Part shown: positions 29,484-33,401 of the stretch, piece after piece
Position numbering within the stretch: position 1 is the stretch's first letter
Layout: every line of letters starts with the position of its first letter
DNA from: Tsukamurella pulmonis
GTDB taxonomy: Bacteria > Actinomycetota > Actinomycetes > Mycobacteriales > Mycobacteriaceae
Reading direction: 5' to 3'
Length of the DNA: 64,000 nucleotides
Assembly: GCF_900103175.1 (NCBI RefSeq)
Contig: NZ_FNLF01000002.1
Location: 4,416,136-4,480,135 of the forward strand
The notes under the pieces: model-generated
Databases searched by the model: none
What the model saw: the letters and a program-made list of their open reading frames with translations, nothing else
What the model was told of the DNA's origin: nothing
Program-made: the position numbers and the translations under genes

Positions 29484-29951
29484 TCAAGCCGACTCGGCCG
29501 CAGCCGACAGCGCACCGTCGGGCTGCGCAAACGCGCGCCGTCGAGCCAGGAGCCGGTCGACCGACCACCGGGCCCGGGACGCCGTGATCGCCAGGAGCAG
29601 GAAGGCCCAGCAGAACACCGCGGCGTAGTCGCCGCCGTTCTGCAGCGGCTCCCAGTGCACCGGCAGGTGGGTGAAGAAGTAGGCGTAGGCCATGGTCCCC
29701 GCGCCGAGCACGGCGGAGATCCGGGTCCACAGGCCGACCGTCAGGGTGACACCGAGAACCACCTCGATCACCCCGGCCCACCAGTAGGGCCAATTCAAGA
29801 AGGGCTCGGGATGTCCTGAGCCCGTGGGTGATCCGCTCCACCAGCCGAACAGCTTCTGCGTGCCCTGCAGCAGGAAGACGACGCCGAAGACCAGGCGGGC
29901 GCCGGTGGGCACGGCCCAGTCGAGGACCGTACGAAGTCTGTCGGATTGCAA
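29484..29951 (-). CDS. DoxX-family membrane protein (155 aa)
   Basis: Small four-helix membrane protein of the DoxX family, implicated in mycobacteria in a membrane oxidoreductase complex for thiol and oxidative stress. Features: ARLVFGVVFLLQGTQKLFGW in helix 1 (the conserved Q/K-LFGW patch), YWWAGVIEVVLGVTLTVGL in helix 2, MAYAYFFTHLP in helix 3 and a C-terminal Arg-rich tail. The start is TTG 29951 (GGGGA ribosome site 4 nt upstream); the frame stays open to 30026 but that extension runs through the operator region. It is divergent from the DsbA-CcdA operon, sharing the 102-bp region with four phased half-sites. Confidence 0.85.
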   Translation of the reverse strand: MQSDRLRTVLDWAVPTGARLVFGVVFLLQGTQKLFGWWSGSPTGSGHPEPFLNWPYWWAGVIEVVLGVTLTVGLWTRISAVLGAGTMAYAYFFTHLPVHWEPLQNGGDYAAVFCWAFLLLAITASRARWSVDRLLARRRAFAQPDGALSAAAESA

Positions 29952-29992
29952 GGAGTCCCCTTTCGCGGTACGCGGTCCGGCGGCAGCCCATC

Positions 29993-30033
29993 TACTAATC
30001 GCCTTAGTAATTAAGCTACTATGCAACTTAGTA
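29993..30033. promoter_or_regulatory. four phased TACTA/TAGTA half-sites in the divergent doxX-dsbA promoter
   Basis: TACTA (29993-29997), TAGTA (30005-30009), TACTA (30017-30021) and TAGTA (30029-30033) repeat with an exact 12-bp period, giving two tandem dyads TACTA-N7-TAGTA in an AT-rich island. The hexamer TACTAT at 30017 could be the -10 of the DsbA operon, so occupancy would block transcription. BlaI/MecI-type repressors bind AT-rich dyads of this size, and a BlaI-like gene is the fourth gene of the operon. Autoregulation is therefore the natural reading, though inferred. Confidence 0.75.
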
Positions 30034-30052
30034 GTTCACGGGAAGGGGCATC

Positions 30053-30757
30053 ATGGCGGTGAGCGCGAAGCGCCGGAGGGACATCGGACTGGCAGCGATC
30101 CTGGTGGTGGTGATCGCGGTCCTCGCCGGCTACCTGGCCTTCGGACGGTCGGGCGACGGGGGCCGGGCGCAGGCCGCGGACAGCGCCGCCCCCACGACGG
30201 CGCGCACGGCGACGAACCAGTTCGCCCGGCTGCAGGAGAACGATCCCCTGGCCATGGGCCCGCTCGACGCCCCTGTGGTGATGGTGATCTTCTCGGACTT
30301 CCGCTGCCCGTTCTGCGCGAAGTTCAGTCGCGACACCGAGCCGCAGCTCATCGAGCGGTACGTCCGCCCGGGCAGGATGCGGATCGAGTGGCGCGACCTG
30401 CCGATCTTCGGCGAGCAGTCGATCAACGCGGCCAAGGCCGGCCGCGCCGCCGCGGAGCAGGGCCGGTTCTGGGAGTTCACGCACGCCGTCTTCGGGGCCG
30501 CCCCGGAGCGGGGCCACCCCGATCTGACCACCGATGTGCTCGTCGGCCACGCCAAGGAGGCCGGCGTTCCCGACCTGGCGAAGTTCCGCGCGGACTTCAC
30601 CGGCGACGGCCTTCTCCCTGCCGTGCAGACCGACTTCCAGATGGCGGCGGCGAGCGGTGCGACCTCCACGCCGCTGTTCATGATCAACGACAAGCCGGTC
30701 GTCGGGGCGCAACCGGCCTCGGTCTTCACCTCGATCATCGACGCGGAGCTCGGATGA
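30053..30757 (+). CDS. membrane-anchored DsbA-family thiol oxidoreductase (234 aa)
   Basis: Extracytoplasmic thioredoxin-fold protein that catalyses disulfide formation or exchange in exported proteins. A single N-terminal signal-anchor (DIGLAAILVVVIAVLAGYLA) is followed by a linker and a DsbA domain with active site C-P-F-C (residues 85-88, in DFRCPFCAKF), a helical insert and the cis-Pro region SGATSTPLFMIN. The ATG is at 30053 with GGAAGGGG 5 nt upstream. The stop overlaps the ccdA-like start by 4 bp (ATGA). It is the first gene of a five-gene operon whose promoter carries the phased TACTA/TAGTA sites. Confidence 0.92.
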   Translation: MAVSAKRRRDIGLAAILVVVIAVLAGYLAFGRSGDGGRAQAADSAAPTTARTATNQFARLQENDPLAMGPLDAPVVMVIFSDFRCPFCAKFSRDTEPQLIERYVRPGRMRIEWRDLPIFGEQSINAAKAGRAAAEQGRFWEFTHAVFGAAPERGHPDLTTDVLVGHAKEAGVPDLAKFRADFTGDGLLPAVQTDFQMAAASGATSTPLFMINDKPVVGAQPASVFTSIIDAELG

Positions 30758-31662
30758 TCGACGTCGGATTGCTCGGCGCCCTGCTCGGCGGCGTGCTCGC
30801 CCTGGTGAGCCCCTGCTCGGCGATGCTGCTGCCCTCGTTCTTCGCCTACTCCTTCGACCGTTCCGGCCTGCTGGTGCGGCGGACCGCCGTCTTCTACCTC
30901 GGCATGCTGGTGGTGCTCGTGCCGCTCGGCGCGGGCGTGGGCGCGATCGGCTCACTGCTCACGCGCTACCGGACGACGGTGACCACCGTGGGCGGCGTGG
31001 TGATGATCGTGCTCGGCATCGCGATGATCGCCGGTCTCGGTTTCCGGTTCGGCGCCGCGGACCGTCTTGCCTCGCGGATCACGGTCTCGTCCGGGCTGTC
31101 GGTGTTCCTGCTGGGCACCGTCTACGCGCTGGCCGGCTTCTGCTCCGGGCCGGTGCTCGGCAGCGTGCTCACCGTCGCGGCCGTCGGTTCCCAGCCCGCG
31201 TACGGCGGCCTGCTCATGGCCTTCTACGCCCTCGGCATGGTGCTCCCGCTGTTCGTGCTCGCCCTGGTGTGGGAACGGTTCGATCTACGGAGCAAGCGGT
31301 GGGTGCGGGGTACCGAGATCCGCATCGGCCCGCTCCGCACGCACACCACGAACCTGATCTCCGGGGTGCTGTTCATCGCGATCGGCGTGCTGTTCGTCGC
31401 GACCGAGGGCACGGCGTCGCTCATCGGCATCACCACCAGCGACACCCAGTTCGATCTGCAGGAGTGGACCCAGCAGGTCACCTCGCACGTCTCGAACCCG
31501 ATATTCTTGCTGGTGATCGCCGTCGTCGCGCTCGCCGTCGTCCTGTACCGGCTGGCGCGACCGGCGGCGGGGACGGAAGCAGCGGGCGCGGAGGAGACCG
31601 GCGCGGCGCAGGATGCGAAGGAGGCGGGCGATGTCGACGCAGTCGATGCGCAGGGGCGCTGA
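30754..31662 (+). CDS. CcdA/DsbD-type transmembrane thiol transporter (302 aa)
   Basis: Passes reducing equivalents from cytoplasmic thioredoxin across the membrane to extracytoplasmic thiol proteins. It has the duplicated three-helix CcdA core, with the two redox cysteines in the first helix of each repeat (LALVSPCSAMLLPSF and LAGFCSGPVLG), both followed by proline or glycine as usual. Six to eight membrane segments are predicted, with an Ala/Glu-rich C-terminal tail. ATGA overlap with the DsbA gene; its last 32 bp overlap the next gene. The natural partner is the adjacent DsbA-like protein. Confidence 0.9.
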   Translation: MIDVGLLGALLGGVLALVSPCSAMLLPSFFAYSFDRSGLLVRRTAVFYLGMLVVLVPLGAGVGAIGSLLTRYRTTVTTVGGVVMIVLGIAMIAGLGFRFGAADRLASRITVSSGLSVFLLGTVYALAGFCSGPVLGSVLTVAAVGSQPAYGGLLMAFYALGMVLPLFVLALVWERFDLRSKRWVRGTEIRIGPLRTHTTNLISGVLFIAIGVLFVATEGTASLIGITTSDTQFDLQEWTQQVTSHVSNPIFLLVIAVVALAVVLYRLARPAAGTEAAGAEETGAAQDAKEAGDVDAVDAQGR

Positions 31663-32113
31663 GCCGGTGCTCGTCGCGCTCGCGACGGGCGGGATCACCG
31701 CGCTGGCGGTGGGCGTGCCCACCGACGTGATCGACACCCCGCTGTTCACCCGGCAGCTGCCGGTGAGTTGGTGGGAGGCACCGGTCGTGGTGACGATGGC
31801 CGTGCTCGCAGCGATCGCGGGCGGCGCAGTGGCCCTGCGCCGCCGGCGCGCCGGCACGGGCGAGCACACCACCGTCGCCGGCGTGCTCAGCGTCGTCGGC
31901 GCCACGCTCGCGGTCGGCTGCCCCGTGTGCAACGCCGTCGCCGTCGGCGTGCTGGGAACCGCTGGGGCGATGTCGATCTGGGCCCCCGTCCAGCCTGTGC
32001 TCGCCGCCGCCTCGATACTCGCGATGGGCGTCTTCGCGGTGCGCCGCGTGCGGGCCGCCCGGTGCGGCGACGAGGGCTGCCGGACCCCCGTCTCGAGCGG
32101 GGGTGCGCGGTGA
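31631..32113 (+). CDS. small membrane protein with intramembrane CPVC motif (160 aa)
   Basis: Unknown family, with four predicted helices. A Cys-x-x-Cys lies within a hydrophobic segment (AVGCPVCNAVAVGVLG), followed by a further helix and a C-terminal tail with another cysteine pair (ARCGDEGC). The position between ccdA and the blaI/M56 pair and the two cysteine pairs suggest a thiol relay or metal-sensing role (inference). The start is ATG 31631 with AAGGAGG 6-7 nt upstream, inside the ccdA-like gene; ATG 31613 is a weaker alternative. The stop overlaps the next gene by 4 bp. Confidence 0.75.
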   Translation: MSTQSMRRGAEPVLVALATGGITALAVGVPTDVIDTPLFTRQLPVSWWEAPVVVTMAVLAAIAGGAVALRRRRAGTGEHTTVAGVLSVVGATLAVGCPVCNAVAVGVLGTAGAMSIWAPVQPVLAAASILAMGVFAVRRVRAARCGDEGCRTPVSSGGAR

Positions 32114-32472
32114 AGGGCGCGTACGGCCTCGGCGAACGCGAGGCCACGATCATGGCCGTGTTGTGGGACGCCGACGAGGCGCTCACCGTGCGCGACGTCC
32201 TGGATCGGCTCGCGAGCCCGCTGGCCTACACCACGGTGATGACCGTCCTGGACAACCTGCACGGCAAGGGATTCGTCGCTCGGCAGAAGGCCGGCCGCGC
32301 CTTCCGGTACGTGCCCGCCGAGAGCCGCGAGCAGCTCACCGCGCGCATGATGCGGGACCTGCTGGCCGAGAGCGGCGACCCCGAGGGCGTGCTGCTGCAC
32401 TTCGCCAAGGGCGCCTCCGCGGAGGAGTCGACGATGCTGCGCGAGATCCTGCGCCGAGGCGGGCTGGTATGA
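32110..32472 (+). CDS. BlaI/MecI/CopY-family transcriptional repressor (120 aa)
   Basis: Winged-helix repressor of the BlaI class, normally a dimer on AT-rich dyads and inactivated through a partner M56 membrane protease. The sequence shows the family pattern GEREATIMAVLWDADEALTV at the N-terminus, then the recognition region LAYTTVMTVLDNLHGKGFV and KAGRAFRYVPA in the wing; the C-terminal helical dimerisation part is short. GTGA overlap with the CPVC membrane gene and ATGA overlap with the M56 gene place all five genes in one transcript. The four phased half-sites at 29993-30033 are the likely target. Confidence 0.92.
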   Translation: MKGAYGLGEREATIMAVLWDADEALTVRDVLDRLASPLAYTTVMTVLDNLHGKGFVARQKAGRAFRYVPAESREQLTARMMRDLLAESGDPEGVLLHFAKGASAEESTMLREILRRGGLV

Positions 32473-33401
32473 CGGTCGTCCTGACGCTGATCGCCGCCGC
32501 CGTCGTGATCGGTTGCGCCGGACCGCGATTGCTGCGCGTCGTCGAACGCCCGACGGTCTCCCCCGCGGCCGCCCTGGCGGCCTGGCTCGGCACCGTCGCG
32601 GCCGCCGTCCTGCTCACGGCCGCCGCGGCGGCACTGGCGGTACTGCCGCACCTGCTCGAGACGGGTCCTGTACGGGCGCTCGTGAGCGAATGCCTCAGCG
32701 GCAGCGTCAGTGCCGACTCGTGGAGCACGGCCGCCCGGATGGCCGTCGCCGCGGTCCCGCTGCTCGCGCTGGCCCGCCTCGCCGCCGTCGCGGTCCCGGC
32801 GGCCCGCGCCGCGCGGCGCTCCCGCGACCGCCACCTGACGGTGGTGCGCCTGCTGTGCAGCGACGCCGAGGGCGTGCACTGGCTCGACGAGGCCAGGCCG
32901 CTCGCCTACAGCCTGGGCGGCCGGCCCGGCGCCGTGATCGCCACCGCGGGCGTGCGGGGCCTCGGGGAGCGACGGTGCGCCGCCGTCCTCGCGCACGAGC
33001 GCGCGCACATCCGCGGTCGGCACCACCTGATGCTGCAGGGCGTCGACGTGGTCGCCGCCGCCTTCCCGTTCCTGCCGCTCGCCCGCCGCGCGGCGCTGAT
33101 GGTGCGGCTCCTCGTGGAGCTGGCGGCCGACGACGCGGCGGCGCGCTCGCACAGCCCGCACACCGTGCGCTCCGCCCTGGCCCTGATGGGCGGCGCGACG
33201 CCGGCACCGTCGGTGCCCGGGGGCCTGCACATGTCGAACGAGGCGATCGCGGTGCGCCTGGCGCGCCTGGATTCCGCGCGGGTGCGGCGCGGGCCGCGCC
33301 GCGGCGCCCTCGCGTCGGCCGCCTTCTCCGTCACCCCCGCGGTGGTCGCCGCCGGAATGCTGACCGTCGGCTTCCACACCGCCTGCACGCTGCTGCTCTG
33401 A
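32469..33401 (+). CDS. M56-family (BlaR1/MecR1-like) membrane metalloprotease (310 aa)
   Basis: Membrane zinc protease whose usual job is to relieve repression by the neighbouring BlaI protein. The zinc motif H-E-x-x-H is in VLAHERAHIRGRHH, followed by a downstream acidic ELAADDAAA helix providing the third ligand. Membrane helices flank the motif at both ends (N-terminal LIAAAVVIGCAGPRLL; C-terminal VTPAVVAAGMLTVGF). Unlike BlaR1 (about 585 aa) there is no penicillin-binding sensor domain, so the inducing signal must be sensed differently, perhaps via the DsbA/CcdA partners (inference). Last gene of the operon; ATGA overlap with blaI. Confidence 0.88.
   Translation: MTVVLTLIAAAVVIGCAGPRLLRVVERPTVSPAAALAAWLGTVAAAVLLTAAAAALAVLPHLLETGPVRALVSECLSGSVSADSWSTAARMAVAAVPLLALARLAAVAVPAARAARRSRDRHLTVVRLLCSDAEGVHWLDEARPLAYSLGGRPGAVIATAGVRGLGERRCAAVLAHERAHIRGRHHLMLQGVDVVAAAFPFLPLARRAALMVRLLVELAADDAAARSHSPHTVRSALALMGGATPAPSVPGGLHMSNEAIAVRLARLDSARVRRGPRRGALASAAFSVTPAVVAAGMLTVGFHTACTLLL

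What the first reader, a model, noticed from the sequence alone, without database searches (positions are those of the whole stretch)
29484..33401. Thiol-redox operon wired to a BlaI/M56 switch, with four exactly phased operator half-sites
Seen: DsbA, CcdA, an intramembrane CPVC protein, a BlaI repressor and a sensorless M56 protease in one overlapping operon, divergent from a DoxX gene. Between them TACTA/TAGTA half-sites repeat at exactly 12-bp intervals (29993, 30005, 30017, 30029). Known: M56 proteases relieve BlaI repression in beta-lactam resistance; CcdA and DsbA carry out extracytoplasmic thiol chemistry; DoxX is tied to thiol stress. Inference: a proteolytic switch that monitors extracytoplasmic disulfide or copper status and controls a redox repair module, with the CPVC protein as relay or sensor. 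The M56 protein lacks the BlaR1 sensor domain, so the signal is novel.
Basis: partly seen in the sequence, partly recalled or inferred. Interest (0 to 1): 0.78.

Follow-up and report, generated by a model that had tools for sequence, protein, structure and literature searches.

The report
Protease switch for envelope thiol/copper genes
A small bacterial operon for handling sulfur-containing groups outside the cell sits with a repressor and a membrane protease related to the penicillin-resistance switch, and that protease seems to carry a pair of cysteines where its relative has an antibiotic sensor.

Summary
Window 29484-33401 carries DoxX and an overlapping operon DsbA, CcdA, CPVC membrane protein, BlaI, M56-type protease. 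The four half-sites are two exact TACTA-N7-TAGTA palindromes. Ten exact copies exist in the genome (about 0.08 expected), at three places: here, a copper/envelope island with its own BlaI/M56 pair, and upstream of cydAB. The five genes recur together in 20 of 110 related loci, 15 with an exact operator inside the cluster. DoxX did not recur.

A sensorless M56 is not new: mycobacterial BlaR lacks the sensor too. New here: M56 proteins of thiol/copper loci carry two predicted extracytoplasmic cysteines (P0006 C75, C306); C75 lies in the loop that signals in BlaR1. In an alternate-row sample of BlaI-linked M56 proteins both occur in 12 of 12 in copper/envelope setting, 0 of 22 beside cydAB, 2 of 35 elsewhere. 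The BlaI has no cysteine. The CPVC protein is MerT-like.

Best reading: a BlaR1-like protease reading envelope thiol/copper state through a cysteine pair and derepressing a thiol-repair module. Anatomy is shown; binding, proteolysis and sensing are inferred. New variant of a known kind.

The parts
29484..29951 (-). DoxX-family membrane protein, divergent; faces the operators but is not a recurring part of the module
   Evidence: PF07681 E 3.5e-14; no DoxX match in the other loci labelled
29993..30009 (.). BlaI-type operator 1, TACTAATCGCCTTAGTA, exact palindromic half-sites
30017..30033 (.). BlaI-type operator 2, TACTATGCAACTTAGTA, exact palindromic half-sites, 24 bp from operator 1
30053..30757 (+). 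DsbA-like thiol-disulfide oxidoreductase with one N-terminal TM, CPFC (C85, C88)
   Evidence: PF13462 93.7 bits; PDB DsbA 4pwp E 5.3e-42; Cys census and TM
30754..31662 (+). CcdA/DsbD_TM membrane thiol transporter, C21 and C130
   Evidence: PF02683 48.4 bits
31631..32113 (+). CPxC membrane protein, MerT-like; C97, P98, C100, N101 and C150 invariant in 35 of 35
32110..32472 (+). BlaI/MecI-family repressor without any cysteine
   Evidence: PF03965 95.6 bits, cut-off 22.6; nearest PDB chain 2g9w E 2.2e-16
32469..33401 (+). BlaR1-like membrane metalloprotease without C-terminal sensor domain: H176ExxH180, E217xxxD221, predicted extracytoplasmic C75 and C306

Best explanation
The operon is a self-controlled extracytoplasmic thiol-maintenance module. 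A BlaI repressor sits on two palindromes between doxX and dsbA and keeps the operon low. The M56-type protease has the BlaR1 membrane/protease core, but in place of a penicillin-binding domain it carries a cysteine in the loop before helix 3 (C75) and a second at the outer end of the last helix (C306). A change in the state of this pair (disulfide, mixed disulfide, persulfide or Cu(I) binding) moves helix 3 as displacement of the EL1 loop does in BlaR1, switches on the cytoplasmic protease, and BlaI is cleaved. The derepressed products, DsbA (CPFC), CcdA (electrons from the cytoplasm) and the MerT-like CPxC protein (thiol or metal relay), restore envelope thiols and could also reset the M56 pair, closing a feedback loop. 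Shown: gene order, operators, recurrence, cysteine conservation and its split by context, BlaR1-type fold of the model. Inferred: DNA binding, BlaI cleavage, topology in the cell, sensing, and the exact signal.
Against: No binding, cleavage or expression data. The cysteine pair follows the M56 tree (4 parsimony changes; one split holds 56 of 61 pair-bearing proteins plus 2 others), so context counts are not independent events, and some rows are near-duplicates. Five of the 20 five-gene loci have no exact operator. In the random BlaI sample the N7 excess is small: 6 sites in 5 loci, against 3 sites at N8 and 3 at N9. In the genus, 16 genomes searched, the window's protease was found only in its own genome, so the operon is accessory. 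DsbA and CcdA labels occur beside CPxC without a labelled BlaI in 36 of the 110 loci, so BlaI control is not essential to the module.
Confidence: 0.5

Rival explanations
1. Copper-specific switch: the M56 cysteine pair (perhaps with the CPxC protein) binds Cu(I), and thiol genes respond because copper damages envelope thiols.
For: The island pair sits among multicopper oxidase, P-type ATPase, TlpA-like, Lgt, Lnt, L,D-transpeptidase and NlpC genes with six exact operators; DUF305 and a heavy-metal P-type ATPase lie beside the two 'other' cysteine-pair proteins; CPxC is like MerT, a metal-handling family.
Against: The window operon holds no copper gene. Of loci with DsbA and CcdA, 17 of 20 with BlaI and 32 of 36 without have no labelled copper/envelope gene within the fetched stretch. 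CPxC also sits with rhodanese, TauE and Lactamase_B-rhodanese genes.
Confidence: 0.25
2. The cysteines form a structural disulfide, and the protease senses something else (membrane, respiration), as the pairs without the cysteines presumably do.
For: Cytochrome bd-linked and housekeeping M56 proteins lack these cysteines; mycobacterial BlaR has no sensor domain (PMC5473688); the trait is largely inherited in one clade.
Against: The pair separates thiol/copper loci from cydAB loci without exception in the sample, and a second clade that has it (L077, L079-L082) also comes from five-gene loci.
Confidence: 0.2
3. A beta-lactam-responsive BlaI/BlaR1 system.
For: BlaI family membership and BlaR1-type fold of the protease.
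Against: No penicillin-binding domain was found in the 310-residue protein, and none of the six proteins of the locus matched a beta-lactamase family.
Confidence: 0.03

Closest known systems
Staphylococcus aureus BlaR1/BlaI (PMC9834060, abstract and passages seen)
   Different: No penicillin sensor domain, no beta-lactamase in the operon; cysteine pair instead; redox genes beside it
Mycobacterium tuberculosis BlaI/BlaR, Rv1846c/Rv1845c (PMC5473688, passages; Sala 2009 known only through citing papers)
   Same: Sensorless M56 with BlaI; BlaI binding at cytochrome bd reported there; that paper already proposes WhiB4/BlaI/BlaR as a redox link
   Different: There redox acts through WhiB4 on transcription of blaR and blaC. 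The own genome's third pair (L084) is the likelier counterpart and lacks the two cysteines; P0006 is in a separate clade
Copper/envelope island of the same genome and of Tsukamurella tyrosinosolvens plasmid 14 (NZ_LR134456.1)
   Same: BlaI, M56 and CPxC protein; in the own genome the M56 cysteine pair and the same operator
   Different: Neighbours are multicopper oxidase, TlpA, CcdA, Lnt, Lgt, L,D-transpeptidase, NlpC; BlaI, M56 and CPxC of the own island are 53%, 35% and 47% identical to those of the window
MerT mercuric transporter
   Same: Helix with a Cys pair, loop, helix, then a cysteine: hhalign probability 93.7 over 68 columns
   Different: CPxC in place of CC, extra N-terminal helices, below Pfam's MerT cut-off, no merP or merA in the operon
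CopY copper repressor
   Same: BlaI-like family
   Different: P0005 has no cysteine, so no CopY-type metal site (the CopY cysteine motif is recalled)

Membership tests
BlaI/MecI repressors (PF03965) | Family HMM over curated cut-off | tested here: met
   95.6 bits against 22.6
BlaI/MecI repressors (PF03965) | Binds a palindromic operator upstream of its operon | tested here: inconclusive
   Operators present and tracking BlaI in relatives; binding itself not testable here
BlaR1/MecR1 receptors | HExxH and ExxxD gluzincin motifs in a four-helix membrane core | tested here: met
   H176, E177, H180, E217, D221 invariant in the 50 rows of A2; helices of the model; structure match to BlaR1
BlaR1/MecR1 receptors | C-terminal penicillin-binding sensor domain | tested here: not met
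   Protein ends four residues after C306 at the end of the last helix; no such domain in the Pfam scan
Peptidase_M56 (PF05569) | Curated Pfam score | tested here: not met
   19.0 bits against 31; over the cut-off only for Peptidase_M48, 21.1 against 20.3
MerT (PF02411) | Curated Pfam score | tested here: not met
   P0004 14.4 bits against 32.9; 20 of 35 relatives match at E <= 1, best 1.2e-4
MerT (PF02411) | Adjacent cysteine pair CC in the first helix | tested here: not met
   CPxC in 35 of 35; CC in 5 of 5 fetched MerT proteins that hold that stretch, the sixth starts after it
DsbA-like oxidoreductases | Thioredoxin-fold HMM and CxxC | tested here: met
   PF13462 and PF01323 over cut-off; CPFC at 85-88
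CcdA/DsbD_TM | Family HMM over cut-off | tested here: met
   48.4 bits against 27.1
CopY | Metal-binding cysteines in the repressor (recalled) | tested here: not met
   P0005 has no cysteine; TIGR02698 30.8 bits against 121.95

The most novel reading that the evidence does not exclude
A large actinobacterial class of BlaR1-like proteases has replaced the antibiotic sensor with two extracytoplasmic cysteines and so reads thiol or copper state of the cell envelope directly, turning it into repressor proteolysis. The same kind of switch drives a DsbA-CcdA-CPxC repair operon and a mobile copper/cysteine-enzyme island in one cell.
Probability: 0.45. Interest if true: 0.78.

Novelty: new variant of a known kind. 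Interest (0 to 1): 0.62.

Why it matters
How sensorless M56 proteases, including the mycobacterial one, receive a signal was described as unknown in PMC5473688 (2017; passages). Here a class with a built-in candidate sensor (two cysteines) stands beside a class without it, in the same genome, so the question becomes a two-residue experiment. If true it adds a membrane-spanning thiol/copper sensor that works by proteolysis of a cysteine-free repressor.

Tried and rejected
Considered and rejected: the CPVC protein as the only sensor (the protease itself carries the conserved pair, and DsbA-CcdA-CPxC occurs without a labelled BlaI in 36 of 110 loci); a CopY-type metal site in the repressor (no cysteine); DoxX as a core part (no recurrence); cydAB as a target of the window's own pair. 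The last because cyd sites are of the form TACTAC-N5-GTAGTA and lie just before cydA in 9 of 9 other genus genomes for which I held such a locus, and none of those genomes has the window's protease, so the housekeeping BlaI is the likelier binder. Only 1 of 103 sites in the BlaI-bearing CPxC loci has C..G at those positions.

Rows dropped and limits: one search kept only ORFs with HExxH (49). A2 (50 rows) leaves out L084, L151, several near-duplicates, five cysteine-pair sample proteins and all cysteine-free ones, so its 50 of 50 describes the class and is no test. One search counted 110 of 114 loci (4 without a C[PA]xCN match); its labels come from BLAST to the window, island and cyd proteins, and CcdA2 counted as CcdA for the five-gene set. 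Some unnamed loci are the same genomes as named ones (for example L052 and L147), which the 90% dereplication answers for. The sample is every second row, as I counted them, of the listed part, whose list was cut: 73 loci, M56 found in 69. One search counts 71 M56 proteins: two from L185 and the own L084 added. L214, BlaI and M56 in one reading frame, fell outside the classes; by eye it has a loop cysteine but ends early.
Full report
What is there. The window lies at G000:C2:4416136-4480135 of a 4.78 Mb genome. The genus is probably Tsukamurella; that is my inference from a T. tyrosinosolvens plasmid carrying an island of the same gene order as the own one, and no call names the genome. Between doxX (-) and dsbA (+) lie two exact palindromes TACTA-N7-TAGTA, 24 bp apart, followed by five overlapping genes: dsbA, ccdA, a CPVC membrane protein, blaI and an M56/M48-type protease. 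Ten exact sites exist in the whole genome where 0.083 are expected from base composition. Six lie in a copper/envelope island with its own BlaI, M56 and CPxC protein (53%, 35% and 47% identical to the window's). Two lie upstream of cydA, which is followed by cydB and an ABC transporter gene. Two are here. The genome has three BlaI genes.

Recurrence. Relatives of the CPVC protein were found in 34 of 298 genomes of the order, own included. In those 80, DsbA was labelled in 43, CcdA in 45 and an exact operator seen in 30. Over both sets 20 of 110 loci hold all five genes, with gene midpoints within 2.4-4.6 kb (16 of 83 after dereplication, by my count from that list); 15 of the 20 have an exact operator inside the cluster. 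Exact operators occur somewhere in the fetched stretch in 34 of 40 loci with BlaI and in 10 of 70 without (p 1.4e-13; dereplicated 28 of 33 and 7 of 50, p 8.7e-11). In 44 BlaI-bearing CPxC loci there are 103 exact sites in 37 loci; N5, N6, N8, N9 and four shuffled half-sites give none, and the reversed order TAGTA-N7-TACTA gives 4. In the random BlaI sample described below the same scan gives 6 sites at N7 but also 3 at N8 and 3 at N9, so the clean result belongs to the CPxC loci.

Three settings. (A) DsbA-CcdA-CPxC with BlaI-M56; the named five-gene loci are from Rhodococcus, Prescottella, Tomitella, Prauserella, Saccharomonospora and Micromonospora. (B) CPxC, usually with DsbA-CcdA, without BlaI, beside rhodanese, TauE, metallo-beta-lactamase-fold/rhodanese, CsoR-family or DUF302 genes, in Arthrobacter, Cryobacterium, Streptomyces, Nocardioides and others. 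(C) Copper/envelope islands with multicopper oxidase, P-type ATPase, TlpA-like, CcdA-like, L,D-transpeptidase, NlpC/P60, Lgt and Lnt genes. Thirty-one plasmids carry a CPxC relative; in the 25 rows listed it is annotated 'hypothetical protein' each time.

Limits. The cysteine trait follows the protein tree: one split (support 0.887) holds 56 of 61 pair-bearing proteins plus 2 others, and parsimony counts 4 changes. The five outside form a second clade (L077, L079-L082), all from five-gene loci. The counts are therefore few events seen many times. P0006 belongs to a 13-member clade with support 0.991, whose other 12 members are all in the five-gene list, some of them near-duplicates. In the genus, 16 genomes searched, the window's protease is found only here, the six island sites in 7 genomes, letter for letter, and at least one TACTAC-N5-GTAGTA site in 14; in 9 of 9 other genomes whose locus I held it lies just before cydA. 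The operon is thus an accessory, probably acquired module.

The CPxC protein. A94, C97, P98, C100, N101 and C150 are among the columns invariant in 35 of 35. MerT is the family most often touched in Pfam (20 of 35 members at E <= 1, best 1.2e-4), and a profile comparison with six MerT proteins gives probability 93.7 over 68 columns. It is below the MerT cut-off and has CPxC, not CC, so I call it MerT-like, not a MerT. A thiol or metal relay is the likeliest job; its fold comparison said nothing.

Mechanism, marked by standing. Shown: anatomy, operators, recurrence, cysteine pattern, BlaR1-type fold of the model. From known families: BlaI represses and BlaR1 cleaves BlaI directly (PMC9834060 abstract); DsbA and CcdA handle envelope thiols (established knowledge). 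Inferred: envelope thiol oxidation, persulfidation or Cu(I) alters the C75/C306 pair, helix 3 moves, BlaI is cut, the operon opens, and its products repair thiols and reset the sensor. Whether thiol or copper is the primary signal is open.

Known background. Mycobacterial BlaR lacks the sensor domain, BlaI binds cytochrome bd and ATP synthase promoters there, and WhiB4/BlaI/BlaR has been proposed as a redox link acting through WhiB4 (PMC5473688, passages seen, citing Sala 2009, which I could not read). So sensorless M56, the link to cyd and a general tie to redox are known. The cysteine-pair class, its operator and its thiol/copper neighbours did not show in the listings of searches of an open-access library, which misses most subscription papers.

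Changes at the checking stage: the count of DsbA-CcdA loci without BlaI was corrected from 34 to 36, the copper-neighbour counts were restated, the sample's N8/N9 sites were added, and searches were made to check operator positions and the cyd and island gene names.

Noticed in passing
L011 (G000:C2:308000-327500): Copper/envelope island with six exact operators and its own BlaI/M56/CPxC; the six operator sequences are identical in 7 of 16 genus genomes and the same gene order is annotated on T. tyrosinosolvens plasmid 14, so it looks mobile.
   Followed up: partly
L011:9357-18450: The island carries extra copies of envelope enzymes that depend on cysteine (L,D-transpeptidase, NlpC/P60, Lnt, and Lgt acting on lipoprotein cysteines; these roles are recalled), as if to replace enzymes that copper poisons.
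   Followed up: no
L012:5373-5408: Two TACTAC-N5-GTAGTA sites upstream of cydA; such sites lie just before cydA in 9 of 9 other genus genomes held. In the BlaI sample 23 of 71 M56 proteins sit beside cydAB labels, but those loci showed no exact operator.
   Followed up: partly
L214:3116-4339 (-): BlaI and M56 in one open reading frame, near TlpA- and CcdA-like genes.
   Followed up: no
L066, L068, L098, L123, L137, L158 and others: CPxC, often with DsbA-CcdA, beside rhodanese, TauE, Lactamase_B-rhodanese, DUF302 or a CsoR-family repressor, which points to sulfane-sulfur handling.
   Followed up: partly
G000:C2:494835, 523686, 1509533, 2683930, 2864574, 2869897, 2918651, 3344650: Eight further operator-like sites with one mismatch, fetched as L245-L251 but not read.
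   Followed up: no
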